64,000 nucleotides of DNA from Rugalucina vietnamica (lineage: Eukaryota; Mollusca; Bivalvia; Lucinida; Lucinidae). This document shows, one piece after another, positions 20,921 through 56,900 of this stretch. The notes under the pieces are model-generated. The model worked only from the letters and a program-made list of their open reading frames with translations, was not told the DNA's origin and did not search any database. Location of the stretch: assembly GCA_964017185.1 (NCBI GenBank), contig OZ024875.1, forward strand, positions 60,879,043-60,943,042, in the 5' to 3' direction. A program made the translations under genes and the position numbers. Each line of letters starts with the position of its first letter. The first letter of the stretch is position 1.

Positions 20921-22884
20921 TTAACAGTTCAAGAACCCAGTATGTCGGAAATACGCATGCATGTCGCTACTCGATATCATTTTTGTTGCTGAATAAATTG
21001 CAGCATGCAAGTTACTGTGTAAAATATTCCCATAACTAGGGCGACGAAGTATGCTTTTGATCTGACTAAAGCAGCCCTCTATCGGATTCATATCAGGACT
21101 GTATTTGGGTGTGAACACCACATCAATTCCCTGTTGCGACAACCACTGTTTCAGTATCCGCGCTAGCTCAGAATGGTGAATCGGGGCGTTATCAACCACC
21201 AAAATGTCTCCCGGCTTCAGTGCTTGAGTACCATAATCTGTCACTGTTTCCACACATTCTGCGATGAAACTGACAAAAGTGTAAGAATCTGACGCCCCTT
21301 CTGTAACTTTGTAATGTGTTGCTCCCTGCAATCCTGTCAAAAGAGTTGAAACGAGTTTTACACGGACCTATTTGGGAATTTTAATTGGTACAGCTTTTTT
21401 AATTGAAGCAAAAACACTTAGGATATTCTTCAATGGTAATGCTGAGTGATGCCCGTGAAACTGCAAACCAACTATCACGAAGGTACAATCAAAATCACTA
21501 CATGTGCGGTCTACCGAGTCGATACTGCATATATGACTGTCGACCGAGAGTTAAGGCTGTCGACCGAGTCATAACAATAAATGATACTAGTGAACTGGCT
21601 GTCGACCGAATTATGGCTGTCGATCGTTGCGGCGGTCGATGGACTCGGTCGACAGCAGACTATTACGTGTATTGTATACGACTCTTGTCTCGGTTTACAG
21701 CGCAGGTAACTATTTGTATTGTACACCGTGATAATAGTAATTTTACTACAGGTTGTACATGTATAACAGGATCAAATCATCGACTTGGAGCGCGTCAGAA
21801 ACATAAAGTTACACAATATATAAAGTGCAAAAATACACCCAAACAGTAGGTTCAAATTACACAATGCAACAGTAGGTTTCCAAAGCTATGTAAAAGGTAC
21901 ACGCAGGTGGCGAAATAAACCATCGGCTACCTGTTTTATTCTGAATCTAATGTAATTGTAAACTTGTGATACGACGAAATGATAACCAAGCAGGCACATT
22001 ATGACGTCAAATCAACGTCTATGGCGACGTTGATCCGACGTCATAATGATGTCAACCAGGGGATGTCATTTGCTACTTCACCAGGGCAGTGATGAGTCTG
22101 GGTAGTCTAGCAAGGTATTTCTCCATGTTCAAGCCACTCTGTGTTGTTAAAACGCACATGTAAAGAAAAAAGCAAGTACACAACATACGATACCTGCAAG
22201 TAAGTGTAAGGTGGCATTTGGGATGGAATGATAACGAGTTACTTCAACAGCATCCTGTCCTTTAGGCGCATGCCCGTATAGCGGATTTCCTACTTCAGGA
22301 AGGCGAGAGCCAGACTCATCCATAAACTGGAGTTTATATGGATCTACACTGTTTAATAAGTCCATGTAGGTTTCAGTGTACACAAGGTTATTTAATGTCA
22401 GTCTCTCCACTGCCATTGTTTTTATTCTCTTACGCGTCCAAGGCTCAGACATATATGATCTAACAGCTCGACGAACAGTTCGCGGTCCTATATTTGACGT
22501 AGACACCTGCATCAAGTCTGCATGTAAAGCAGCTGAAGTTAACGGCGGTTTCATTGTTTTGCGATATTTGATATAGTCAATGTCCTGGTCGGTTACTGAT
22601 CTGTGTCGACCGACAGGTTGTTTTGGTTCTTTCCCGAAACAAAATCTCTTCCAGTGCAGCGTTACAGTGGAAACACTCACTTTATATTTGTTTGCAACCG
22701 CTGAAAAAGCACCACGATCAACCTGGGATGTGCTTTTGTTTCCATTATAATCCTGCTCTAGATCACCAATGATCAGCTGAATTAAGTCATTAGATAATTC
22801 TTTTCCGCATGCATAATCCCGTTTATGCTTATTCAATTTATGTTTATTATACGACATAATTGTTTCCAAACCAAAGTAACTCAT
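20921..22884 (-). CDS. IS630/Tc1-superfamily DDE transposase with one intron
   Basis: Exon 1 is 22884-22194 and exon 2 is 21333-20921. The donor (GTATCG) and acceptor (TTTTGACAG) join in phase 1 and give a 367-residue protein. Roughly residues 30-150 hold helix-turn-helix DNA-binding regions (VANKYKVSVSTVTLHWKR; VGRHRSVTDQDIDYI). The catalytic domain has the first Asp in FMDESG (about 189), the second in ILVVDNAPIH (about 278) and Glu in YSPDMNPIEG (about 316), a DD37E spacing by count. This is a cut-and-paste transposase of the DDE_3 type. No stop or frameshift interrupts it, so it may be recent or domesticated. I could not find its terminal inverted repeats. The 860-bp intron holds clustered GTCGAC motifs. 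Confidence 0.75.
21530..21662. repeat. Cluster of CTGTCGACCGA repeats in the transposase intron
   Basis: Four direct copies of a CTGTCGACCGA-like motif begin near 21537, 21559, 21599 and 21621 (the last reads CTGTCGATCG), followed by an inverted copy TCGGTCGACAG near 21648. Spacing is irregular (about 22, 40, 22 bp), so it is not a CRISPR array. It may be a set of protein-binding sites belonging to the transposon. Confidence 0.5.
21995..22050. repeat. Imperfect palindrome with TGACGTCA/GACGTCA sites
   Basis: The left arm CATTATGACGTCAAATCAACG is matched by the right arm CGTTGATCCGACGTCATAATG as reverse complement with few changes. A TGACGTCA octamer sits in the left arm. It lies in the transposase intron and could be a nested MITE end or a regulatory palindrome. 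Confidence 0.4.
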
Positions 22885-23607
22885 TAGGTGTGTAATTGAA
22901 TCAATAAGAGTATATGGAAGGTGTGGCTTACTACTTAGGCGGAGCTATCGTCCAATGAAAATAATACAATGATGTACTCAATGACAACCGAGCACGCATC
23001 AAGGTAAAATATCGATCGATGGATTGACAAAATATGACACTGATATGAAGGCTATTTTCGAACCTTTTCGACCATACGTGTATTATCTACAGGAACATCT
23101 TTTTTATCTAAAGAAATAAGGAGAATATGTTGTCGAGAGTAACCGACGACATAGCACGGTATTCGGATCAACAGCTGAGTTCATACACGAAGTCTATATA
23201 AATAGATCCACAGCCGAGTTCATACACGAAGTCTATATAAATAGATCCATGGAACCCGGAAGTACAGAAAAATCAGTTCTAATTTCTTAAAATTTCGCGT
23301 TTTAAATGCCATTTTAAATTATATTGGTAAGAACTTGTCACTGTGTATTTGTAATTATAATTGTAGTGCTAAAGCAAAGGCTACTTTCATTCGTAAAGCT
23401 TGTGACTATATAGATTTGCAATTGTCATATGTTTTCGCGCACGAATTAAAATCCGTTTTACTGCACAGTCAACAAGTTTCAGTCGTGTCGGACAGTACTC
23501 TAGGGATTTTATGTCTTTTTTCTTCTTCTTCTTACTGTGTTCTGAGTCGAGCAATATCTGACCATTACCTTAGGAGCTGTGAAAATCATCCAGTGTGACA
23601 GTTTAAC
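22885..23607. other. Spacer between transposase and LINE copy 1
   Basis: Holds the 39-bp tandem duplication. The stretch 23335-23598 is open in the same frame as LINE copy 1 and ends in TGA; it may be the LINE 5' part before an internal deletion, but no motif proves this. Confidence 0.35.
23166..23243 (+). repeat. 39-bp tandem duplication with TATATAAATA
   Basis: Two units (23166-23204 and 23205-23243) differ at two positions and each end in TCTATATAAATA. They lie 0.4 kb before LINE copy 1. They could be a promoter of the LINE or of an unseen gene. Confidence 0.65.
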
Positions 23608-25977: not shown

Positions 25978-26043
25978 TCCCCTCCGGTCAAGCCCCATCC
26001 CCCTGGTGTAGTATTGTCAGTTTGACGTTTCACCAGTAAACTA

Positions 26044-26073
26044 TTCTGATTCTGATTCTGATTCTGATTCTGA
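26044..26073 (+). repeat. 3' tail microsatellite (TTCTGA)n of LINE copy 1
   Basis: About five TTCTGA hexamers follow a conserved ACGTTTCACCAGTAAACTA stretch that also precedes the tail of LINE copy 2. Such short terminal repeats mark 3' ends of CR1-like elements. LINE copy 2 begins directly after it. Confidence 0.8.
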
Positions 26074-29000
26074 AAATAGGTTTGACCTACTTGCAAGAGG
26101 TCATGAAAACAAGTCCACTGAAACCTTGAATAGCAAAAACAGTTTTATTAGTGGTCTGAAATTTTCCAGTATCAACATAAACAGTATAAGAGGAAAAAAA
26201 CTTGAGTTGTTGGCCTTCATTGATTTTCATCAATCGCAGATTTTGGCGATTCAGGAAACAAAAATTGACAATTCCATATTAACGTCTGAATTATTTCCGG
26301 AATCTTTTCCATACAGCGTGTACAGAAAGGATAGAACCTTACATGGTGGTGGTGTTATGCTTCTTGTACACAAGGACATCCCACACATGCCCCTCACAGA
26401 ATTGGACAATGACTCAGAGTCAGTTTGGGTCAAACTTTTTGTAAATAAGAAAACTCACTTTGTGGCTAGCTGGTATCGACCACCTGTCGATGGTCATTTA
26501 CCAGTATCGGACAATGGAAATGACTTATTGAATTCACTGGAAAAGTTTGACAATTTATTTAGAGAACAGCTTGACAAAATCAAAAATATTAATAAAGGCA
26601 ACAAACCCCCCTTAATTCATGTTTTAGGTGATTTTAACTTTAGAGATATTGTATGGCCGGACAGACTCAGCAAATCTGGGTCATCATTGAGTCAGACGGA
26701 GGGTCAAATTTTGATAGATATCATGAATGACCATGGTTTGGAACAATTAGTCAATTTCCCCACCAGAGAAAGAAATACTTTGGACTTAATTTTGACCTCT
26801 CTTCCTGGTCAGTTTGTAGACATTCATTCCCCGGATAAGCTCAGTGATCATGACATTGTTTCTGGCACATTGAAAATTGCTATCCCCCCTATAAAGAAAC
26901 CTAGGAGAAAAGTGTATCGTTATCAGAAAGGTGATTATGAATCTATGAGAGCAGAAACACTTAAATTTGCAAAGGAAAGATACTTCAATGGTTACTCAGA
27001 TACTCGGTCGGTCCAGGAAAATTTCAATCTCATTACATCGTTTATTCAGGAATCGGCAGATAAACATATCCCCTCAAAAACTAGTCGCTCAGTTTCCTCC
27101 GTCCCTTGGATAACACCTGAAATAAGAAGGAAGATTCGCAGAAAAAATGCAACTCATGCAAAAGCTAAAAAGACTGGTAGTGCAAAATTTAGATCTAAAT
27201 TTGAATCTTTACGGAAAGAGATCAAAGCTGATATCAGGAAGCAGCATGATCTTTATGTGAACAACTTGGTAGGAGATGTTAAGGCTAATCCTAGAGATTT
27301 TTACAGGTACATAAACAGTCAGAAAAAAGATACCCAAGGTATTCCCCCGTTGAAAAAGAGAAATGGAAATGGAATAGCTCAATCTGAATTTGAGAAGGCG
27401 GAAGAATTTAATGGTCAGTTCTCGGATGTTTTCACTAAAAGTGAATACAAACAGGTCCCTCTTATGGATAGATCTGCCCCATTCATGCATGATATTGTGG
27501 TCACAAAGGAAGGGGTGACCAAACTTCTCAAAGGTCTAAACCCGTCTAAAGCCTTAGGGCCTGATGAGCTTCATCCCAGAGTCCTGAAGGAACTGGCTAT
27601 GGAATTAGGGCCGGTATTCGCCCATCTCTTCCAGCAGTCAATTGATACAGGTGAAATTCCTAAAGAATGGTCTCTTGCTAATATTTGCCCCCTGTTTAAG
27701 AAGGGTGACAGGTCACTTGCCCGCAATTACCGCCCTGTTTCTTTGACATGCATTCCTTGTAAGCTTCTTGAACATATTGTATGCTCAAATATTATGTCCC
27801 ATCTTGATGAACATGAACTCCTGTCGGACAGGCAACACGCATTTAGGAAATGGCATAGCTGTGAAACTCAGTTGACTACAGTGATAAATGACTGGGCCAA
27901 AATCTTAGACAAAAAAGGCCAGGTCGACACTTTTATACTCGATTTTGAAAAGGCTTTCGATACTCCTCCCCACGAACTCCTTAAAAGCAAATTGTTCAGC
28001 TATGGAATAGGTGGAACAACACTGAATTGGATAAATGCTTTCCTTTGTTTCAGACAACAAAGGGTAGTGGTTAATGGTATTAAATCGGATTGGGCTCCAG
28101 TTGTGTCGGGTGTCCCTCAGGGCACCGTTCTCGGCCCCTTGCTGTTTTCCTTGTATATAAATGACATCTCAGCAGACATCGAGTCTGAAATAAGACTCTT
28201 TGCTGATGATTGTGTTTGCTATCGTGAAATCAAGAATGAAGAGGATACATTGAAACTTCAAAGAGACATTGATCGCCTAGGCAGTTGGGCTAGAAAATGG
28301 GGAATGAGATTTCAACCCGTCAAATGCAACATGATGCAGCTGACAAATAAACGGTCTAGTAAGATACAGGCTAACTACACCCTTGAGGGCACTTTACTGG
28401 AAAACGTTGAAAGCATAAAATACCTGGGTGTAACTATCACAAATGATTTGAAATGGAATACTCATATTTCCAATGTTTGTACAAAGGCTAACAGAACTCT
28501 CGGATTCTTGAGGAGAAATTTGTATTCTTGTCCCCCAGATGTGAAAGAAGCAGCTTATAAAGGACTGGTGCGGCCGGTCTTGGAATATGGAAGCTCAGTT
28601 TGGGACCCTCACACTCATGGCCTCCAGGAAGAACTGGAAAAGGTCCAAAATCGTGCGGCAAGGTTTGTGACGGGAAATTATGTTTTTGAAACTGGGAGCA
28701 TGACTGGCATTTTAGGTCAACTGAAATGGGAATCTCTTAAGAAAAGGAGGAAGGATAGCAGACTTATATTGCTATACAAAGGTCTAAAGGGTAAAGCCAG
28801 AATACCCACAGATGACCTTATCCCAAAGAATAGGCGTTGTAGAAATCAACACTCTTTGGCTTTTCAGATACCTTCAGCTAGCAAAGAAGCGTACAAAAGT
28901 TACTGTAGTTTCTTTCCACAGACTATCAGGGACTGGAATGACCTCCCTGATTCACTTGTCTCCTCTGCTGAAATGTCTGATGACTGTGTGTCCAAGTTCG

Positions 29001-29116
29001 CTTCACTCGTGCGTTCAAGGGACTAATTTCCCCCCCATCCGAACCCCCTGGTGAAATAATGTCATTTGGCGTGTCACCAGTAAACTATTCAGATTCAGAT
29101 TCAGATTCAGATTCTC
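26074..29116 (+). mobile_element. LINE copy 2 (same family), endonuclease plus reverse transcriptase
   Basis: The main protein region is 26126-29026, about 966 residues and open throughout. The AP endonuclease is complete: SSININSIRGKKLELLA, ILAIQETKID (catalytic Glu), SWYRPP, HVLGDFNFRD and LSDHDIVSG. The reverse transcriptase has FILDFEKAFDTPP, GVPQGTVLGPLLFSLYIND and LFADDCVCYREI. It is close to copy 1 across the shared part but differs at many codons and in its tail hexamer (TTCAGA, 29089-29116 against TTCTGA). The 5' end sits on the tail of copy 1, with no ORF1 or 5' UTR seen, so it is probably 5' truncated. The frame is open upstream to 26012, through the tail of copy 1. Confidence 0.85.
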
Positions 29117-29910: not shown

Positions 29911-31185
29911 ATGGACAAACAGGATTTTAAAATGAGAAGAAGAAAATTCTGTACAGCAAAGAAAATTATCCTTGTGGCTTTCTTGACAGTCATATTTCTT
30001 TTTATCTCTTCAATGGTGTTTGAAAAGCAGTGGACTGGCATTTTCTCTGAACTTCAAAAGAATTTTTATACTGTTGAGTATATCAATGTAACAGACTGGA
30101 AAAGGCTAAAGTATGAAAGCTGCGATGGAAAGTTTATTGGATATGGTCACCAGTTTGCTTTGCTGAAGGACGTTGCCCTTATTCCTAACGATGATAAGTT
30201 CTACATGGCTTGCCAAAGTTTGCCAAAATATCATTTCAAATATGGGAAAGAGGGAACACATCTGAATGATTGGATGGAGAACATTGACTACATAGAAAGT
30301 ATGGGCCAAGGAAAATTAGTTTCTAAAGGAGCAAAGCATAAGATCAGTGAAACATTTACAGTAGCTGTTTTGAGATATGAATATGCTAATTTTTACCATA
30401 CAGTAACAGATTGGTATAATGTTTTCATACTGACAAAACTGTTAAATGAACCAATTAAAGACACTAGCATTATTTTATATGATCAAAATGCAAAAGGGCA
30501 TTTAGATGAAACATGGTCAACATTGTTTAAGAATGTAATTTTTAGACAAGACCTGTCAGAAACAACATTTTACAAGAAGTTAGCATGGAATGTACTTGGA
30601 TATGAGAGCCCAATAAATTTCCATGCAGCACTGTCACTGCCGTATGTTACAGACTTTCACAGTTTCTTCATACAACAACATGGAATTCATGCTGCAAAAT
30701 CCCTGAATTGCAGCCAGATTGTCATCACATTCATCTGGAGGAGGGATTATGTCGCACATCCTGGCAATCCAACAGGTTTAATCTCAAGGAAGGTGAAAAA
30801 TGAGGAGGAACTTGTATCTCATTTACAAAAAGTTTTCCCCAAGGTGTTAGTCAAGGGGATCCAGTTAGACCAACATTCTATGAGGACACAACTGGAAGTA
30901 ATTACAAACACAGACATTCTGATATCTATGCATGGTGCAGGACTTTCACATATTTTGTTTCTACCCCACCATGCAGGGGTTGTAGAACTATTTCCAATAT
31001 ACTGGAAGAAATATTTTGGTGCTTCACATTTTAAAGCTATGGCTAAATGGAGAAAACTTCACTATAGTGCCTGGCAAAATCTGAACCCATCTAATGAGTT
31101 TGACAAGTTTTATACATACGTTCCACCATCAGCATTAGAAAGTCATGTCAAACCTCTCTATAAACAGATGTGTACAACTTTGTGA
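29911..31185 (+). CDS. GT61-family glycosyltransferase (EOGT/POMGNT2-like), type II membrane protein
   Basis: A 424-residue reading frame without introns. Residues about 9-16 are basic (RRRKF, KK) and about 18-36 form one hydrophobic segment (IILVAFLTVIFLFISS), a signal anchor for a type II protein of the ER or Golgi. The C-terminal half carries the DUF563/GT61 signature: TDILISMHGAGLSHILFLP followed by GVVELFP, with FIWRRDY before it. Known members add GlcNAc or xylose to proteins or glycans; the acceptor here cannot be told. The start is chosen because a 3' splice site (tttacag) ends at 29901 and an in-frame TAA sits directly before the ATG, so a 5' untranslated exon is spliced to 29902; that exon was not found. 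AATAAA lies at 31203-31208, about 18 bp after the stop. LINE copies end 0.8 kb upstream. Confidence 0.8.
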   Translation: MDKQDFKMRRRKFCTAKKIILVAFLTVIFLFISSMVFEKQWTGIFSELQKNFYTVEYINVTDWKRLKYESCDGKFIGYGHQFALLKDVALIPNDDKFYMACQSLPKYHFKYGKEGTHLNDWMENIDYIESMGQGKLVSKGAKHKISETFTVAVLRYEYANFYHTVTDWYNVFILTKLLNEPIKDTSIILYDQNAKGHLDETWSTLFKNVIFRQDLSETTFYKKLAWNVLGYESPINFHAALSLPYVTDFHSFFIQQHGIHAAKSLNCSQIVITFIWRRDYVAHPGNPTGLISRKVKNEEELVSHLQKVFPKVLVKGIQLDQHSMRTQLEVITNTDILISMHGAGLSHILFLPHHAGVVELFPIYWKKYFGASHFKAMAKWRKLHYSAWQNLNPSNEFDKFYTYVPPSALESHVKPLYKQMCTTL

Positions 31186-32452: not shown

Positions 32453-32487
32453 TTATATTTTGGTTGGGTACAGTTTATATAAAAAAC

Positions 32488-32657
32488 AGTGACGGATTTA
32501 GAGGGGGTTCCCGGGGTTTGCTTGAACCCTCCTCCGGAAGCAAATTCTTTCAATTTCATGGGGAAATTTATGAAAAATCAGGTAAAATGTTAGAAACAAA
32601 CCCCCCTTTGTGAATTTGAACCCCCCTTCCAGAAATCCTGGATCCGCCCCTGGAAAA
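32488..32657 (-). repeat. MITE family E (CAGTGGCGGAT termini), reverse
   Basis: CAGTGACGGATTTAGAGGGG to CAGAAATCCTGGATCCGCCCCTG. Termini resemble hAT-type MITEs. Confidence 0.65.
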
Positions 32658-43000: not shown

Positions 43001-46000
43001 CATATCACAGGCCAGTGAGAGCTCCAGGCCTCCACCCACCGCAGTACCGTCCAGTGCCACTATGGTGGGTATCGGTAAGTTGGCAATTTCAGACAGTGAC
43101 CCTCTTAACTTGGCAACAAAAGGGCCAACATCTTCTGGTTTCATCGTAGCTCTCTCCTTTAAATCTGCGCCTGATGAAAAATAATATGGTAAATTTTCAA
43201 CATCATTTTTAGAGATGAATTGGATTAAAATAGAAATTTTGAAAAAAAAATTCAGCTACCGACTATACATTTCTGTGAAGTGAGACGATTAAAAGAGCAG
43301 TATTTATTTGATTTTCGTAAGTTATGTAGTAAGTTTAAGAATGTTATCTTACTTAATTTTTATCTCATGCCTTCTTAAACTAAAAGAATGGTATACACAG
43401 GCAGATCCAGGATTTCTGGAATCAGGGTTCAAACACACCAACGGGTTCATTTTCTACATTAAACCTGATTTTTCTGATATTGTCCCATGAAAATCAAACA
43501 ATTCGGACCCACAAAGTGGAGGCTCGAGTGTAACCCCTCTAAATCCGCCACTGGTATTTAGTTGGCCATTTATCAAGCTTCTCTATCAAAATACATGTAT
43601 AACACAACCAATTAATTGTGGAAGTGTCTAATAGTAGTAAACAGTTATCCACATACCTGCACAGAATGTTCCCTTGACTTCACTTCTAAGTATCAGAGCT
43701 CTTAAACTATCATCATATTTCACCTTCTCTAGGGCTTCTGTCAGCTACAGAAAAATATATAAAAAAATATAATGAACAAATTTAATTAATGTCACAGCAA
43801 AACATTTTTTAAAGTAGAAAAAAGTAATAAATCTCAGTCATCAAGTATGACACAACCTCATCTGCATAAAAAAAAACAAAAAACAAAAAAAAAAACAAAA
43901 AACAAAACAAAAAAAAAAAAAACAGAAAATAAGTGACAAGGCAAAATGATAGGTTTTATTAGAATAGCTTTTTAGCTCACCTGAGCAGTTAGGCTCACAA
44001 GGTGAGCTTGTTTGATGGCCATGATCCGGCGTCCGTCCGTCGTCCGTCCGTCCGTCGTCGTCCACCATTTTCAAAGATCTTCTTCTCTGAAACCGCTTGG
44101 CCAATCAAAGCCAAATTTTATAGGAAGCATCTATAGGAAGGGGGAACCAATGTGTTTATAAATAATCCAGGTCACATGACCAAGATGGCCGCCATGCCCA
44201 TATATGGTAAAAACCCTTCAAAATTCTTCTTCTCCGGAACCACTGGACCGATTTCCATGAAACTTGGCATGAAGCATTGGGGATTAGAGTACTACAATGT
44301 GTTTATAAATTATGACCTTCTAATGACCTTGACCTATTTTACAGCAAGGTCAACATAGGTCGCCCGTGCATTTGAATGGGGAAAATTGTTAAAATGTCAT
44401 TTGAAAGGCAAATCTTGCAGGAAATGGGCAAATGGACTGAAGGTAGGTAATTCTAAAAAAAAATTGGACCCCAGGGGTTGGTCTGCCCCCACCCCGGGGC
44501 AATATACATATATATTACAAAAATATTCAAAGATCTTCTTCTCTGAAACCACTTGGCCAATCAAAGCCCAATTTTATAGGAAGCATCTATGGGAAGGGGA
44601 AATCAATGTTTTTATAAATAATTTAGGGTCACATGACCAAGATGGCCGCCATGCCCATATATGGTAAAAACCCTTTAAAATTCTTCTTCTCCTGAACCAA
44701 TGGACCGATTTCAACAAAACTTGGCATGAAGCATCAGGGACTAAAGTACTAAAATGTGTTAATAAATTATGACCTTTGGATGACCTTGACCTATTTTACA
44801 GCAAGGTCAACATGGGTCGCCAATGCATTTGAATGGGGAAAACTTTTAAAATGTCATTGAAAGTGATAGTCTTGCAGGAAATGGGCAGTAGGACTGAATA
44901 TTAATGATTCTGAAAATAAATGGACCCCAGGGGCTCATTTGCCCCAGCCCGGGGCATTATACATGTATATTACCATAATATTCAAACATCTTCTCCTCTG
45001 AAACCACTTGGCCAGTCAAAGCCAAATTTTATGTGAAGCATCTGTAGAATGGAGGAATCAATGTGTATATAAATAATCAAGGTCACATGACCAAGATGGC
45101 CGCCATGCCCATATATGGTATAAACCCTTCCAAAATCTTCTTCTCGGGAACCGGTGAATCGGTTTCGAAGAAACTTGGCATGAAGCATCAATGACTCAAG
45201 TACTACAATGTGTGTATAAATCATGACCCTGTGATGACCTTGACCTATTTTAAGGCAAGGTCAACATGGGTTGCCTATGTATTTGAATGGGTAAATTGTT
45301 AAAATGTCATTTGAAGGGAAAAACTTGTATGGACAGTATATTGATTATTCTGAAAAAAAAAATGACACAAGGGCTTCATCTGCCCCTATACTTGAACTAT
45401 TTTCTATAACATTTGTATATACAGCAGATCTCAGTTGAGCGTTTACAGGACCATTGGTCCTCTGGTTTCATATAGTGACAAAGGTGCTGATCAGTTGCAC
45501 AGTCACCTGATTACTGAGTTCTGAAGAACACTTGTGAATGGTTGCACTATTGATAATCATCATACTTCCACCTCTAGATTCTTCACTTGCTCTACTTGCA
45601 ACCAATAAACTCACAACATTGGTTGACCTCTATTTGAAAATTCAGTGATTAGAAAATACCTTTTGCAGTAGACTCCTGCTAATAGCATTTCTTGCAGCCT
45701 GTCTGTTCAGAGAAAATACAGCTATCCCTGGAACATAGTAAATAGAAGAGATTGTCAGCGAATTGGCATGAAACAAATCTTTCAGCTTCAGCCACAGAAT
45801 ACGACTAGTGACTTGAAACATCTATTAAGAAATTCTGGAATGAACATTCTATAATCTGTCAACCTTATTATTTCATTCTCAATCCGAAGTTTAAAAATCA
45901 TGAAAAAGAAAGACTATGGAAGCCATTTAACATATTTGGTCACTCCATAATTTTGTATTACAAAGGTATTGTTAGAACAAATTTTGTGTATAATCGGATT

Positions 46001-47957: not shown

Positions 47958-50900
47958 ATGGCAACAAAACTTTTTGAAAGATCAAAGTCAATGAAAATCT
48001 CTCTTGATGACACAACTCCTCTGATGTGTGTTGTTGAGAGTGGTGAAAAAGTCCAGGATCATGTTGTAAGTTCATCACTGTTCGCTGTAATTCTGTCATC
48101 TGATATTCAGTGGTTGTGGGGAGTGCAGTGGCCAGATTGTAGCGCATTGCATTCAGAATCAAGAGGTTCTGGGTTCAGTCCCCCACACGGTTTGACATGT
48201 TGTGTCTTTTAGGACAGCAGGAGCCAGGAGTGTACGTGATGGAAGTTACATAAAAGACTATCCTAAATGCGGTGCGTTCCTTTACCGGAATGGACCTGAT
48301 TACCGGAATGGACTACCGGAATGGACATTTATTTGAGTATTTTTCATTTGGATTTTTAGTACAGATTTGCCTAGAATGTACACAGACAAGGATTAGTTCG
48401 AGAATCATGTAGTTTAAGTACAGTTAAATTGTGTTCCGTACGAATGGGTGGCCCTAAATTCAAGATATTCCAAGCTATTTAAGGAAAAGCAACTTAAAAC
48501 CGGACATCCGGGTGTGCCTTGTCCAAAGGCAGAATCTGTAAAGAAAAGAAGAAGAAGATGGCTTAGTGGTAGAGCATCAGACTCCAAAATGAAAATTCCT
48601 GGGTTTGATCCCCACAGGTGTCACCGAGTTGTATCCTTGAGCAAGACACATTAACTCCCCAGAGTACTGGTTTAACACCCTGGAGGCAGTGGTGGTGGCT
48701 CCGTCTTGATATGACTGAAAAATGTTGACTTGGACATATTATACTCTGACAAATAAACATGTACACTAACTCTACAGTGTACTGGTTACAGGGCTTTATC
48801 CAGGTATTTTGGGAATGGGGCCTTTTTCCCCTATAATTGAGAAAATATTCTGCAATTTGAGAACGAAAATTCCAGGTGTAAGTTGCCAAAATTGGGAATT
48901 TTGCATGATTTTTAGAAAATATCATTTGGGAAAGGGGCCTCTTTTCTGCCCCTGAGGATACCTGGATAAAGCCCTGGGTTACTACATAGGAAGCGTTTGC
49001 TCCATCCAGGCATGACTGAAAAATTGTTGCCTTGACCTTAAACCTCAATGCAAAGATACTACAAGCTACTACAAAGTGACATTAAGTATAGTCAGATTGT
49101 TACGGTTCATACTTAGCTATAAGCTCAGCATGTCATAAGCCCTTGTCAAGTGGAGTTGACTCAGGGCGCAGTGGTGAAAGCCTTTAATGTCATGATGGAA
49201 AATCATAGCAATTGCACAGCAACCTTTGTGCTTCTTGGCAGTGACAGAGCTCCTCTTTCATAGGAGACGGGATCAGTCATTTTAACTTTAAATTTATTTT
49301 AGGAGTACAACTTGAAGATTCAAAGAGGTCTTGCCTCTGACTTGTGTTGGCAGCTGCAGAAAAGATACTCCGACTTTCTGCAGTTAGACACAGACCTGAG
49401 TATAGCAGGAATAGAACTACCAATGCCAAAGAAGAAACTCATAGGGAACTTTGACAGAGAGTTTGTGGCAGAAAGACAGGTGGGACTACAGGTAAGGACA
49501 TTACAAAAACATGCCCATGTAATATACTGAATTATCAGTGGCGGATCCAGGATTTCTGGAAGGGGGGCTCAAACCCACCAACAGGGGCTTGACATTAAAA
49601 TCCTGAGCCTAGTGTGGTCATGTATCTCTCTTGGTACATGTAAATGGTTTATACTGCTTGCTGATTATTGTAAGCCCAATAAGTTGAACAATAGGATTTC
49701 TTCGTTGAACATTGTCAATATTAATGAACATTGTATATTTACATATAAGAAGCCATATCGCAATGTTTCATATGAAGGCTAAACATGTGACACTGCATAG
49801 TGCATTCAATGCCCTTTGATCGTGATTATCAGCGCGTCATTGGATGGGCCCGTTGCCGCTAACATCATCTAAGTTTGTTGATTTTGAGCTGGAAATAATG
49901 ATCAACTTGCTTTTGATATATGTATACAATGCTATGCTAATGCACTGATTACGGTATTAACTTTTGCATTCTCCTTGAGACAGTATGTTACTACTTGTGT
50001 GTGTTATAAATTTATTTTGTACTATGAATGTAATGTGATTTAATTTGTGTTTTCTGATTCTTAAAAATGCATTTTGCATATATTAAACTAGTATAAGAAT
50101 ATACTTTTAAGCGACCAGCAACCACTCAAGATAACATGATAGTATTCTAAACCATTACATATATATTTACTCCAGTTTGCTCCACATAAATAAGTCAGAG
50201 TAACTGTTTTGCTCCCCTGCTACTATAGTAAGTAAAGTAAGTATTTTTATCCTTGTAACTGAATCTAATTTTGCTTTGAAAGTTATGAAGTATTTATTTT
50301 TATGGAGGAATAAGAAAATATTGATGGCAGGGGAAATAGACAATCATTAGAAACATAATATGTATATGCATACTACGTACCCATTTATAACTGGGTCCGA
50401 CAAAAAACCGGATAATCTATACGAATCGTTATTTTTATGTCAATTTTAGTTAAGAATAGGTAAAAGCTTTTCTACAGCCTCACACAATGTATATAAATAT
50501 TAAGAAGACGCTTTGAAAATAGTCTCTTCCTGCTGACTTTATTCTCTCATGACCTTGTATTGTTTTTCATGTTTTGTTGATATGTTTGTGTTGCTTTCTT
50601 TGGTTGGTCCCGGGTTGCCTTCGGTCCCAATCTTTTCTCGGATTTGGCTGATGCCCGACGCTGGGTGCGTTCCGCTTTTTTGAGATAATACGATTGGATT
50701 TAACTTCAGAAATACAAGTTTGCTCGGACGGAATCCCAGCGTCGGGTATCATCGCGGCAAGGGCATTATTCTACGTCTCTTTATATTACATGTATTTTTG
50801 TGCTTCTTTATTAATTATGTTTATGCAAACAATGCAAATTTTGCGTTAACACTCTACTGTGTGAAACGATGGTTTGACGAAGATCGAGAAGTTAAAATAA

Positions 50901-53900
50901 GACCTCCCTCATCATTTAAACGCATTACCCCTCTGCTAACGATCTATGAACGGAATGTTTTGTTCTCAACAAAGATTCTCTTTATTTTTGTTACATCGCT
51001 TGTAAGTTTATGGCTATATATCCTTATCTTAGGCTGCGGCGATGTTGAAGTCAACCCTGGGCCGAGTCTCAGTGCGAGTGCGAGTACGAGCTCAAATTCC
51101 TTATCAAGTATGTCAAGTCTTTCATCTCTCCAGTACGATTCACATTTTAGCATATGCCACTTAAATATTTAAAGTTTACTTCCAAAAATCGATCTTCTCC
51201 AGTACGAAATGCAACCTTTTGATGTTTTTGTTTTCATGGAGTCCTGGTTGAATGACGATATAGGAACGGATGATTTAAGGATAGTAAACTTCAACGAGCC
51301 ATATAGATGCGATAGAGAAACTAGAGATGGCGGCGTTGCTATATACGTTAAAGAAAATATATCATGTAAATGCAGACCTGACCTGGAAATTAACAATTTA
51401 GAATGTGTATGGGTCGAAATAAAAACATACGGGCATATTTTTCTCGTTGCGGGTATATATAGACCACCTGATGCAAACCAAAATTACTGGACTTTGATTT
51501 CGGAATCTGTGGATAGGGCTAAAAATACGAATATTTCTGATATTATAATAGTAGGAGACCTCAATAACGATCTGTTGAAGCCGTCAAAGTTCAAACACTT
51601 AAGGGAATTAATAGCTAATTATGAGCTTAGTCAACTTATAAAAGAACCTACGCATTTTACAGAGATCTCATCTTCATTAATAGATGTCATAATGACATCG
51701 AATTTAAACTCACTTATCGCTAGCGAAGTTTGTGATCCATTTATACCAAATCTTATACGATATCATTGCCCTGTTGCTGTAATTCTTTCATTTCCGAAGT
51801 ATAAATCTCAAAATTATAAACGACAAATATGGAAATATGACGCAGCAGATTATAGTAAATATCGTCAAATTTTAACAGAAGCAGATCTGTTAGGAACTGT
51901 AACAAACATGCACGAAGATGTCAATACAATAGCACAACAAATAAATTCAATCATTCTGTCAGCCGCAGAGCAATCAATTCCAAACAAAATAGTTACTATT
52001 CGACCTTCTGACCAACCTTGGATGCATGATGAAATAAGGAAGCTTATTCGTCAAAGGAAAAGAATACACAAAAAAGCAAAGCAAACTAATAGTGATATAA
52101 TCTGGAATAAGTTTAGAAAAATCAGAAACAAAATAGTTAAAAAAATAAGAAGTGCAAAACTAAGGTATGAACATAATACTGCCATTAAACTAAAAGATAA
52201 AACAACGGACATAAAAACCTGGTGGAAACTATCAAAACAAACCTTAAATATTAATAATAAATCTGACATAATACCGAACATAGAATATAATGGTAAAACA
52301 CATGAAACAAACATTGAGAAAGCCGAAGCCTTAAATTCATTTTTCATAAAACAATCACAGTTAAGTAAAGATGCCCCCTCATTGCCAATGAATATACCTC
52401 CTGAATACCCTCTTCTTGACATGGTCAACATAAGTTCACAAGATGTACACGATATTCTTCGAAATTTGAATATAACGAAAGCCCCAGGCCCTGATTTAAT
52501 TAATCCTCGTTTACTTAAAGAAGCCACTGCCGAACTATGCGGTCCACTGAGCGTTTATTATAATAGGTTATTACATGAAGAAATATTTCCAATTGATTAT
52601 AAGAAATCTAACATAGTACCTATCCACAAAAAAGGAGACCGATCAGTTCCAAATAATTACAGACCTATATCTCTTTTAAGCATTATTGGGAAAACTATGG
52701 AGCGTTGTATTCATAAACACGTATATAATTATTGTGTATTAAATAACATTATAACACCATTTCAATCAGGATTTATTCATGGGTATTCAACGACTTATCA
52801 ATTAATTGACATGTATAATTCATTCTGTGAAGCAGTTGACTCGGGTAAAGAGGTGCGTGTAGTATTCTGCGATATAAGCAAAGCATTCGACCGGGTCTGG
52901 CACAACAGCTTATTATTCAAATTAAAAAGTATAGGAATCTCTGGTAAATTACTAAACTGGTTTTCAGATTACTTAGCAGATAGGAAACAACGTGTTGTAA
53001 TTAATGGCAATACATCAGAGTTTAAATTAGTTGAAGCAGGCGTTCCACAGGGCTCTATACTTGGCCCACTTTTATTTCTGGTTTATATTAATGATATTGT
53101 TCGTGAATTAGATTGTAATGTTAGACTTTTTGCTGATGATACCAGTTTGTATATTGTGGTTGAAAACCCCTTACATGCAGCTAATATATTGAATAACAAT
53201 TTGGGAAGAATTTATAGGTGGGCTGGAGTTTGGCTGGTTGATTTTAATGCAACAAAAACAGAATCTATGTTACTAACGCGCAAACGAATTCAAATAGTTC
53301 ATCCCGATTTGATTATGGATAATACTATATTGAGAAAAGTAGATACACATAAACATTTAGGTTTGATATTCTCTCAAGATTGTGGATGGAAGTCTCATAT
53401 TGAAGATATATTAAATAAAGCATGGCATCGTCTTAATATAATAAGAGCTTTTAAATTTAAATTCGATAGACAATCTTTAGAACGAATGTACATATCTTTT
53501 GTCAGACCAGTTCTTGAATATGGAGGGCCTATATGGGATAATTGTAATAAAGAAGAGAAATCCAAATTAGAATCTGTACAAATCGAAGCAATGAGAATTG
53601 TGACCGGAGCTACTAAATTATGCAGTATTGAAAAGTTATACAAAGACACAGGATGGGAAACACTCCAAACCAGACGTAATAAACAGAAATTACAAATCTT
53701 TTATAAAATGGTCAATAGAATAGGACCGAATTACCTTAATAATCTTGTTCCTCCGTTAGTTCAAGATAATTCTCGTTATTCATTAAGGAATGCAAGAAAC
53801 GTATCAACGATTAGGAGCCAATCAAAATTGCACTATGATTCGTTTTTGCCATCATCTATACGTGATTGGAACAGTTTATCGGAAGAAACAAGAAATTCGC

Positions 53901-56900
53901 AATCGTTTTCCATCTTTAAATCGAAACTTAACGCTGACAAAGTCAGACCACCGTTATATTATAACTATGGTCAACGAACACTCCAAATTTATCATACACG
54001 CCTTCGACTAGAGTGTAGTTCATTAAAATTTCATCTTCATAAGTCAAAAATTGTTGATTCTCCTCTTTGTGATTGTGGTGAAGTTGAAACAACCAAACAT
54101 TACCTCATACATTGCCCTCAACACCACATACCACGTAACCAATTTCTAACTAACTTCCTCGATAAACCTATCAAAACCCTATTACATGGAGATTCTCGGC
54201 TAACTCTAGCTGAAAATGAAGAAATTTTTAATGCAGTTCAAACATTTATTGCACACACTAAAAGGTTTTCATAATTGGTTGTCCTTTGCGCAATACCGGG
54301 TTCGGGACTGGGTTGGGATCTGATCTTCCCATGGGTCGCCAGAGTACAGCAACACATCTCCCATTTTTGTTATTTTGTTCTCTACAGAAAAAGTTCAATT
54401 ATATTGTCTACCGAATAAATACAATGTACCATCATAACATATATTTGCTCGAAAATGTAATCTAACTATTTCAGGAGAGGATGTTTATGAGCCAAATGAC
54501 TTGTTTTTCAATCCTGACACTTTATTTGTTTTGTAATGTAAACTGATATGTTATTTTTGATTCAAAAATAAATATTGTTTAAACGGTTCGTTTTCTACAT
54601 TTTACCAGATTTTTTTAAATTTGCCCATGAAATTGAACTAATTTGGTCACAGAGGGGGACTTGTTTGAACCCTCCAAACCCCCTCTAAATCCGCCACTGG
54701 AATTTTCTGAAGTTGTAAAAATTGAAAAAAATTCAGTAGAAAATTTTTGAATTTCTTATAAAATTTCTCAAAACATAGATTGTAGGACCATGTTAGAACC
54801 ACCTCACAGATGAGGATCTAACGAGTACTCACTATCTATGTTTTAGAGCAAAAATAAGAAAAATAGGTAAACTCCTGCAAACCTATTTTCACTTTATAAA
54901 AGTGGGGTTTAAGGGGGTGTACATTTCACGGAAATATTTTCCTGATGAAAAGATGAGTTAAAACAAGATTTAAGCAGAAAAATTATATGTTCCATCAATA
55001 GCAGCATCATTTGAGCCACCTCATAGGAAAACCAAGAATCTGCATAGGCGAAAACAAAGGTGCAGATCAGCTTCGCGGTAACCGCAAAGCTGATCAGCGC
55101 CTTTGTTTTCGCTACTCGGATTGTACAATTCCTCCTCTACTTAACTCCAAAATTTCAAGCTTCTAGCCTGCTTCTGTGACCGTACAGCCTGATTTGTGTC
55201 GGACCTGTTCGGAAACCACATTGTTGGTTTTCCCATGAGGCGGCTCATTTCAAAGTAAATAAAGTTTCTGGTAAGCACAGTTGACTGGTCATTAATGCAT
55301 TCCATTTTGATAGTAATAAAATATATTTGGAGTCTTTGCTCTTGGCTTGTAGAATCTTTGAGCCCTCACTACCAATTAGTTTTCATGAAATAGATAAATT
55401 CTTGGCCATGTATTCATTATGTTTGTTTCATAAGTATTCAACTCTTGTTGGTAACATAGGCATTCTGTGATGTATAATTCTTACTTATGGAAATCTAAAC
55501 AAAAGCAGTAGGAGTTGTTCTACATGCAATATTCCATATAAATGTCTGTGCAGCTTCGAGTTTAAAGCTATTTGCACAAGGAAGTGAAGGAACTATATGC
55601 CTACATATTTTATGTTGTTATTGATGTTTCCAGAACTACCTGACAGAATTACTAAGCAAGCCTGTGTTATATAACAGTCTCCCTGTGAAGAGGTTCTTAG
55701 ACCCTGACAACTACAGCTGTAACTTTACAGGTAAAACAACCCCTATTGAGACTGTTAAATGAGCTACTGGTCATCGGGGTATCGATATAGGTCTGTTACA
55801 AACTAGCCTGTGCAGTCACAGAAGAAGGCTTAAAACTTGAAGTTTCAGATTTAAGAAGAAGAGTGATTGTACAGTTAGCAAAAACAAAGGCGTTGATCAG
55901 CTGTGCAATGACTGCACAGCTGATCTGCACCTTTGTTTTCACAAAGGCAAATGGACAAAAATTTGGGTTTCTCATAGATTCAGCTTACATTTAGCTTTAT
56001 GTGAGACTCCAGGCTTTCGTTATTGATAAGAGTGTGCTGTGGCAGAGCAGTTGGTTTGTCTTGTTCCAAACTTTAGCAATTTTTCTTGTAAAGCAAACCT
56101 TACATATTACAACAAAAGCCTGCAATATCACTGTGAGGGATATATGCCAGTGTACTGCGGCTGCCTGAAGCGCCATGTGTTAGTGGTCGACAGGGTAGAT
56201 AATTCGGAAGTCGGTTGAACATTCATTGAGAGTATATAACAGACTATAAACCACCAACTTTAAACTGTAACAGTATTTTCCATGTTCAACTTTTAAATTC
56301 ATTGCAGTATTTCTTATGTTTTCTTATATTTGATGTAAAGATTCAACAGTTAATCTTATTTTCTGAATTGACAGAGATAGCTCTATGTTTCTATGGTGAA
56401 ACACTCAGAGAAACTGTGTTGAACTTGAAATAATTTTTTCTGTATGTTTACAGAGATAGCTCTACAGCATGTGTCTATGGTGTTACGATCAGAGAAACAG
56501 TGGGATGTCGTTGAAGCACTGCCAGATATAGGTAATTTGCTCTTCTATAGATTTATATTTTAACAGCATCACAAGAAAACCAATTTTTATGCCCCCAACT
56601 TCGAAGAAGTTGAGGGGGCATATTGGTTTGGGTCTGTCCGTGCAGTGAGTGCGTGCATGCAGTCAGTCAGTCTGTGATCAAACTGATGTGTGAGCACACG
56701 GACAGGAACCGTTAGAGCTAGGATCTTGAAATTTGGTATGTAGTTTGTATATGAAAATTAAGAGGACCCATATTTTTTCTTTCAGGTAAATTCAAGGGGC
56801 TAGGGGCCAATTCTGTGAGAGTTATTTCCCTTTTTAATTCTTGATAAAGTGAATAGATAGTGGATACCTTGTGTGCGCAACTCCTCCTACAGTTTTATTC

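What the first reader, a model, noticed from the sequence alone, without database searches (positions are those of the whole stretch)
51041..51064. 2A-type translational recoding motif in a LINE inside PXK
DVEVNPGP follows a hydrophobic stretch and precedes the AP endonuclease. It fits the 2A consensus under which ribosomes release the upstream peptide and carry on. 2A motifs at the N-terminus of CR1-type LINE proteins are known in some invertebrates, and some double as signal sequences; the hydrophobic run (KILFIFVTSLVSLWLYILIL) directly upstream fits that second role. This copy therefore marks a LINE family that may split its protein and route part of it through the secretory pathway.
Basis: partly seen in the sequence, partly recalled or inferred. 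Interest (0 to 1): 0.7.

Follow-up and report, generated by a model that had tools for sequence, protein, structure and literature searches.

The report
Ribosome-skipping leader in a LINE retrotransposon
A jumping-gene copy in an animal gene carries a 2A "stop-and-carry-on" peptide that hundreds of sister sites keep, together with a greasy leader and an RNA hairpin at the start of the protein; 2A peptides in such elements are already known, the conserved hairpin and altered 2A versions look new, and this particular copy is broken.

Summary
The motif is real. GCG-DVEVNPGP ends at window 51064 (+), after a hydrophobic run and before an AP-endonuclease/RT frame. This copy is dead: in-frame TAA at 51170-51172, no in-frame ATG before the motif, 5'-truncated. 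It lies in sense orientation in the intron after a PX-domain exon.

The window's own genome is held (1.09 Gb). A relaxed core pattern occurs 824 times there, against 0 for the reversed control. Of 150 relatives found by endonuclease alone, 16 could be checked; all 16 have a 2A-like motif. The leader is under purifying selection (dN/dS 0.21-0.29 in five pairs).

2A in AP-endonuclease LINEs is prior art. Three things look new. Position 14 is mostly H, not E (50 of 81 copies), and 10 of 81 have Q for the last P. The leader is ~100 aa with two hydrophobic stretches. A conserved RNA hairpin lies at the leader start (17 of 27 groups z<=-2; 0 of 48 ORF2 windows), and in a short-leader lineage it sits at the nearer start codon.

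Skipping is likely. Secretory routing is unproven.

The parts
51041..51064 (+). 2A/StopGo core DVEVNPGP; predicted break between Gly (51059-51061) and Pro (51062-51064)
   Evidence: family conservation
50975..51040 (+). hydrophobic run ILFIFVTSLVSLWLYILIL plus GCG, directly upstream of the core (StopGo upstream context)
   Evidence: inside the last helix of the AlphaFold model
50765..51061 (+). leader region under amino-acid constraint (about -100 to the break), two hydrophobic stretches; no ATG in this frame of this copy
   Evidence: dN/dS 0.22 versus L055 over -100..0, 0.84 before -100; codons; AlphaFold of 50762-51064: helices at residues 3-22, 27-46, 58-92, pLDDT 78.6, pTM 0.41
50649..50751 (+). 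conserved RNA hairpin ending 13 nt before codon -100 of the leader
   Evidence: stretch 50640-50780: -50.8 kcal/mol, z -3.47
51170..51172 (+). in-frame TAA that separates leader+2A from endonuclease-RT in this copy; the frame is open there in L047 and L054
51173..54274 (+). AP endonuclease + reverse transcriptase frame, 1033 aa
49785..54583 (+). approximate extent of this LINE copy (5'-truncated; 3' end ...AATAAATATTGTTTAAAC shared with L054-L057)
49303..49491 (+). PX-domain exon of the host gene; splice-like borders ttttag|gag and cag|gtaagg; LINE is in sense orientation in the next intron
   Evidence: Pfam PX on 49303-49527; borders read by eye

Best explanation
The site is a fossil copy of a genome-wide, functional StopGo (2A) module at the N-terminus of the endonuclease-RT protein of an AP-endonuclease LINE group. 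In an intact element the ribosome starts at or beside a conserved RNA hairpin and makes a leader of about 100 residues (about 50 in a sister lineage). It reaches G-D-[VI]-x-x-N-P-G with a hydrophobic helix in the exit tunnel, fails to make the Gly-Pro bond, releases the leader, and continues with Pro + Ser-rich linker + endonuclease-RT. Molecules in which the bond does form keep a greasy N-terminus and may be held at the ER. Shown: motif, family-wide conservation, purifying selection on the leader, conserved hairpin, open copies. Inferred: skipping itself (from published activity of the same motif class), fate of the leader, ER targeting, role of the hairpin.
For: Core pattern 824 times in the own genome, reversed control 0. 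Endonuclease-only query: 16 of its 150 scored hits lie in the part of the genome for which pattern places were listed (C1, and C2 up to 31.4 Mb); all 16 have a 2A-like motif upstream, 15 exact and one with N before D. The 27 leader groups share G, D, N and P of the core and a Trp in helix 2 (A1 with 26 of the 27). Leader dN/dS 0.21-0.29 for five less-saturated pairs; core pN 0.065 against saturated pS for window-L055. Helix 2 hydrophobic in 27 of 27 groups. A representative of the L-rich upstream class (motif 6) and a p14=H variant were active in rabbit reticulocyte lysate in PMC12846837 (sections read). N-terminal 2A signal sequences with dual fate are published for sea urchin NLRs (PMC4981915: abstract, first part of Results, passages).
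Against: No translation assay was possible. p14 is H or Q in 61 of 81 sampled copies and K in a sister subfamily; E14Q is reported at 26-56% in PMC12846837. 10 of 81 copies have Q at p19, for which I know of no activity data. This copy has no in-frame ATG and has a stop 35 codons after the motif. dS is near saturation for most pairs, so only 7 of 16 pairs gave a ratio, and two close pairs gave 0.55 and 0.58. The first leader search used a query that contains NPGP, so that sample is biased (the endonuclease-only check is not).
Confidence: 0.75

Rival explanations
1. Dual-targeting switch: the leader is a signal sequence; skipped molecules are cytosolic/nuclear, unskipped molecules enter the secretory pathway, and the ratio is selected.
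For: Two hydrophobic stretches at similar positions with a loop that is not hydrophobic in 27 of 27 groups; a short basic N-terminus starting with Met, such as MPVYRR or MHTYRK, before helix 1 in 11 of 27 groups (by eye); published precedent with a 26-aa N-terminal 2A (PMC4981915).
Against: Helix 1 passes KD 1.6 in only 14 of 27 groups and shuffled leaders often score as high. A sister lineage with leaders of about 50 aa has only the 2A-proximal run (by eye). No signal-peptide predictor was on hand. Helix 2 is still inside the ribosome when the break occurs (recalled tunnel length).
Confidence: 0.3
2. No skipping: G-D-V/I-x-x-N-P-G is kept for another reason (a protease site or a structural turn after a membrane anchor), and the RT is made as one anchored protein.
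For: p14 drift to H/Q/K; of 10 sampled copies with Q at p19, 5 lie in open frames of 1193-1222 aa.
Against: The core is what StopGo needs; p14=H was above 95% active and p19=M/W about 92% active in PMC12846837; other LINE lineages with unrelated leaders, some with a PHD-like finger after the break, share the same core.
Confidence: 0.15
3. Only a fossil: the motif at this locus does nothing now and is simply inherited from the master element.
For: TAA at 51170-51172, no in-frame ATG, 5' truncation.
Against: True for this copy but no explanation of family-wide conservation.
Confidence: 0.9

Closest known systems
2A-like sequences in AP-endonuclease non-LTR retrotransposons (Odon et al. 2013, Mol Biol Evol 30:1955; not held here, known from citations in PMC4981915/PMC11512398 and from recall)
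   Same: 2A core in a LINE endonuclease-RT protein of multicellular animals
   Different: Core mostly D[VI]H/Q rather than D[VI]E; copies with NPGQ; ~100-aa leader with two hydrophobic stretches; start-site RNA hairpin; several copies also carry an upstream coiled-coil-like frame (as I recall it, Odon linked 2A to one-ORF elements). Whether Odon lists these variants could not be checked.
Sea urchin SpNLR 2A-like signal sequences (Roulston et al. 2016, PMC4981915)
   Same: N-terminal 2A with a hydrophobic stretch just upstream of the core
   Different: There 26 aa on host NLRs, with measured recoding and targeting; here a longer leader on a retrotransposon RT, nothing measured
Viral StopGo upstream-motif classes 2/6 and core variants (Li et al. 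2026, PMC12846837)
   Same: L-rich + [ASC]G before p12=D; p14=H active
   Different: In viruses p14 is almost exclusively E; here H is the commonest. Q at p19 is not among the variants named in the sections read
SART1 UAAUG stop-start coupling with an RNA structure (Kojima 2005, seen only as passages of the review PMC5972666)
   Same: RNA structure at the ORF2 start of a LINE
   Different: SART1 structure is downstream of an ORF1-ORF2 overlap; here the hairpin surrounds or precedes the start, and where an ORF1-like frame was seen it ended 1.5-2.1 kb upstream of the 2A

Membership tests
2A/StopGo peptides | N-P-G at p16-p18 | tested here: met
   window copy NPG; N 80/81, P 80/81, G 79/81 copies (the locator favours such letters)
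2A/StopGo peptides | Pro at p19 | tested here: met
   Pro in the window copy and in 70/81 copies; Gln in 10, Leu in 1
2A/StopGo peptides | canonical D[VI]E core | tested here: met
   Met by the window copy (DVE). In the group p14 is H 50, E 20, Q 11 of 81; H is a published active variant
2A/StopGo peptides | fitting upstream context | tested here: met
   L-rich + CG before D, compared by eye with the class description
2A/StopGo peptides | separates two products in translation | not testable with these tools
   needs an assay
AP-endonuclease LINE | endonuclease and RT domains | tested here: met
   PF03372, PF00078
AP-endonuclease LINE | dispersed copies, some 5'-truncated, with a shared 3' end | tested here: met
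AP-endonuclease LINE | target-site duplication at this copy | tested here: inconclusive
   no shared stretch of 8 bases or more between 49651-49900 and 54521-54680; the copy is old and its 5' end only approximate
CR1 clade | RT phylogeny within CR1 | not tested
   no reference LINE set on hand
2A signal sequences (SpNLR type) | short 2A acting as N-terminal signal sequence | tested here: inconclusive
   hydropathy only; leaders about 50 to 125 aa, not 26; no SignalP

The most novel reading that the evidence does not exclude
A LINE group has evolved its own translation-control cassette: a conserved RNA hairpin around the ORF2 start that allows initiation at near-cognate codons (GTG in two subfamilies, TTG or ATT in the window clade), then a small membrane leader that is shed by StopGo with a derived H/Q/K14 core. 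Subfamilies with NPGQ have lost or retuned the shedding and keep the reverse transcriptase tied to a membrane.
Probability: 0.3. Interest if true: 0.7.

Novelty: new variant of a known kind. Interest (0 to 1): 0.5.

Why it matters
How LINEs set the small amount of endonuclease-RT they make is an old question. This genome offers many natural variants of one cassette (H, E, Q, K at p14; P or Q at p19; long and short leaders; ATG and GTG at the start position; a hairpin near the start codon), so initiation, skipping and membrane fate can be tested separately with reporters. It would also widen the set of natural StopGo cores beyond RNA viruses.

Tried and rejected
Relatives outside the genome: the RT query in viral contigs found none. 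The 2A pattern gave 2 stretches in viral contigs: read, one is antisense to a repetitive frame and one lies inside a 986-aa phage-like protein. It gave 43 stretches in genome contigs, all titled as bacteria or archaea; not read further and not used.

Known RNA family or ribozyme at the hairpin: 5 Rfam matches for the LINE at E<=5, none near its gathering score. Shunt-type initiation: the in-frame uORF ATG at -414 lies inside the hairpin arm, not before it, so it was not pursued. Stop readthrough from that uORF: the stretch before -100 shows little amino-acid constraint in window-L055 and L054-L055 (0.84, 0.96); in L054-L057 the value is 0.37. Splicing into the leader was considered (a ttcag near 50709) but could not be tested.

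Pairing between distant hairpin groups: with sequence alignment L087 against L071 and L072 keeps 16 of 31 and 14 of 29 pairs, no better than when slid, and L129 against five groups is only partly better; pair-by-pair homology was therefore claimed only within clades.

Helix 1 as a proven signal peptide: not claimed. Target-site duplication: none found. Genome counts for NPGQ and E cores: machine busy, not obtained.

Dropped before counts: 15 of 81 copies with leaders under 95 aa were left out of the 27 groups. L120 (truncated inside the hairpin) and L094 (same as L092 over this stretch) were left out of alignment A5 after A2 was seen. A3 was made but not counted. L123 was left out of protein alignment A1. 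Loci L046-L053 were not in the tallies (L046 is the window copy, L048 is the same place as L054).

Full report
Observation. The window encodes GCG-DVEVNPGP with the last Pro codon at 51062-51064 (+), after KILFIFVTSLVSLWLYILIL. No other D.E.NPGP occurs in six frames, and 0 of 100 shuffles hold the DNA pattern. The following frame, 51173-54274, matches Exo_endo_phos and RVT_1. An exon at 49303-49491 matches Pfam PX (borders read by eye), so the LINE lies in sense orientation in the next intron of a PX-domain gene. The name PXK was not tested further.

State of this copy. The leader frame has no in-frame ATG before the motif, and a TAA at 51170-51172 cuts leader from endonuclease. The frame is open at that place in L047 and L054, and L054 is open for 1194 aa. 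Homology to L054 starts near 49785, and the 3' end ...AATAAATATTGTTTAAAC is shared with L054-L057. The copy is a 5'-truncated fossil.

Family test. That query contains NPGP, so an unbiased check was made with the endonuclease alone (2988 candidates, 150 scored). Sixteen of the 150 hits fall in the part of the genome for which pattern places were listed (C1, and C2 to 31.4 Mb). Fifteen have the exact pattern just upstream, and the sixteenth reads N-DVHPNPGP (L134). Genome-wide the relaxed core occurs 824 times and the reversed control 0 times; 130 of these have H at p14. Which lineages make up the 824 was seen only for the fetched places.

Core variants. In 81 distinct copies (20 long loci, 60 short loci, and the window; all but the window chosen from the list) p12 is D in 81, p14 is H 50, E 20, Q 11, p16-p18 are N 80, P 80, G 79, and p19 is P 70, Q 10, L 1 (the motif locator favours such letters). 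A sister subfamily has K at p14 in 4 of 4 copies (L141, L156, L157, L159). In the viral survey of Li 2026 p14 is almost exclusively E, H is rare but above 95% active, and p19 M/W are about 92% active (PMC12846837, sections read). The L-rich + [ASC]G + D context here resembles their motifs 2/6.

Leader. Of the 81 copies, 66 have an open leader of at least 95 aa and form 27 groups at 75% identity. They share a Trp in helix 2 and G-D...N-P, and nearly all an Asn before helix 2. Helix 2 passes KD 1.6 in 27 of 27 groups, helix 1 in 14 of 27, the loop in 0 of 27; whole-leader shuffles often reach helix-1 values. Sixteen pairs were compared for dN/dS. Seven gave a ratio for -100..0: 0.22, 0.21, 0.29, 0.27, 0.28, and for two close pairs 0.58 and 0.55; the first two share L055 and are not independent. 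In the other nine dS was saturated or there was no synonymous change. Before -100 the values are 0.84 (window-L055), 0.96 (L054-L055) and 0.37 (L054-L057); in the L114-L133 pair, where hairpin arm and codons coincide, 0.15. So constraint starts near -100 in the window's nearest pairs, less clearly beyond. AlphaFold gives helices 3-22, 27-46 and 58-92 of the 101-residue window stretch (pLDDT 78.6, pTM 0.41), the last ending just before GD.

Start codon. Eleven of 27 groups have a Met in a [VI]-M-x-x-Y context before helix 1 (by eye). The window clade does not. Where L056 has ATG-AAG-ATG, L055 has ACG-AAG-ATG, the window, L047 and L054 have ATT-ATT-CTA, and L057, L076, L077 and L079 have a TTG (placing from the alignment). 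In a sister lineage with leaders of about 50 aa, L140, L143, L147 and L150 have an ATG, but one subfamily has GTG directly after a stop codon at that place in 4 of 4 copies and another in 2 of 2 readable copies (a third fetched copy, L160, gave no readable motif). Later ATGs exist in these frames, so non-AUG initiation is a hypothesis.

Hairpin. In the window 50649-50751 forms a long stem (stretch 50640-50780: -50.8 kcal/mol, z -3.47). Over 27 groups the segment -450..-285 has z<=-2 in 17 (mean -2.09). Controls: leader 1 of 27, 2A region 0 of 27, tail 0 of 27, ORF2 0 of 48 windows, further upstream 1 of 16. Four groups (L061, L126, L106, L102) show z above 0 there. In alignment A5 (5 distinct rows, 27 pairs) 89.6% of cells pair against 35-48% when slid, with 7 pairs changed on both sides and 0 of 500 shuffles reaching the covariation score. 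In the window clade (4 rows) 88% pair against 30-48% slid, with 3 pairs changed on both sides; 4 of 500 shuffles reach the score, and 176 of 500 reach the count of both-side pairs, which is weaker. Between distant groups alignment-based pairing is not better than slid (L087 against L071 and L072). By eye, the ATG lies in the 3' arm in MxxY groups such as L071, L112, L129 and in the loop in L114, L092, L098. In the short-leader lineage the low-energy window lies at about -210 to -240, at its start codon: L140 -2.8, L141 -5.0, L142 -3.6, but only -1.9 in L143 and L150 and -1.1 in L147. Other lineages: L153 -3.6; no clear hairpin in L148, L151, L152, L154, weak in L144-L146. G-U pairs among the counted types fit a fold of the sense-strand RNA. 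Rfam has no convincing match.

Mechanism and rivals. The simplest account is StopGo release of the leader, with the 2A-proximal helix acting in the tunnel. Dual targeting as in sea urchin NLR 2A sequences (PMC4981915; abstract, first part of Results and passages read) remains possible for molecules that fail to skip. NPGQ subfamilies are natural candidates for reduced skipping. None of this was measured.

Prior art and novelty. 2A in AP-endonuclease LINEs was reported by Odon et al. 2013, which is not held and was seen only as a citation; its clade list and one-ORF correlation are recalled. Several copies here also have an upstream frame of 345-394 aa (L058, L059, L062, L064); in L058 and L062 it has only weak Pfam matches, mostly coiled-coil families, and between L058 and L059 this region is 96% alike. 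I found no paper on a LINE start-site hairpin or on H14/NPGQ LINE cores in the listings, which show 4 to 25 titles each; this library lacks most subscription journals. HPNPGP itself occurs in a mycovirus paper of the listing (PMC10817634, not opened).

Noticed in passing
L071, L112, L129, L118, L133 and others, about -450 to -285 relative to the 2A; L140-L142 at about -240 to -70: Conserved long RNA hairpin at the start of the 2A leader; in a short-leader lineage it lies at the nearer start codon (3 of 6 copies clear, 3 weak).
   Followed up: partly
L141, L156, L157, L159 and L142, L158: Two LINE subfamilies have GTG where sisters have the ATG start, directly after an in-frame stop; the first also has K at 2A position 14.
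   Followed up: partly
L100, L101, L105, L113, L118, L119, L121, L122, L128 (NPVQ in L130): Copies whose 2A ends NPGQ instead of NPGP, 5 of these 10 in open frames of 1193-1222 aa: a possible natural loss or retuning of skipping.
   Followed up: partly
L151 (minus strand), 347-258: A Met-started 28-residue peptide ending LKLLLSGDVEQNPGP, followed 6 bases later by a splice-donor-like ATG|gtaagc and no LINE frame: possibly a host gene exon with an N-terminal 2A, like sea urchin NLRs. The next 6 kb (L155) was read only by eye.
   Followed up: partly
L144, L148, L152; L149; window 26012-29026: Other LINE lineages have the 2A followed by a Cys/His-rich PHD-like finger. Sequence downstream of L144 (L149) closely resembles the window's own LINE at 26-29 kb, which would then be a 5'-truncated member of that 2A lineage (by eye).
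   Followed up: partly
L145, L146, L153, L154: A further LINE lineage with an unrelated leader of roughly 80-100 aa ([SQ]WR...G[LM]F) and a canonical 2A.
   Followed up: no
L002 2165-5125 (+): Phage-like 986-aa protein containing TTGDIESNPGP; StopGo does not work in E. coli (PMC12846837), so probably chance.
   Followed up: no
window 22147-22944 (-) and 29911-31185 (+): A transposase-like frame and an open 424-aa frame that looks like a glycosyltransferase; judged by eye only.
   Followed up: no
window 54585-54700 versus 32487-32602 and 43444-43554: A repeat of about 115 bp directly abuts the LINE 3' end and occurs twice more in the window at 71-76% identity.
   Followed up: no
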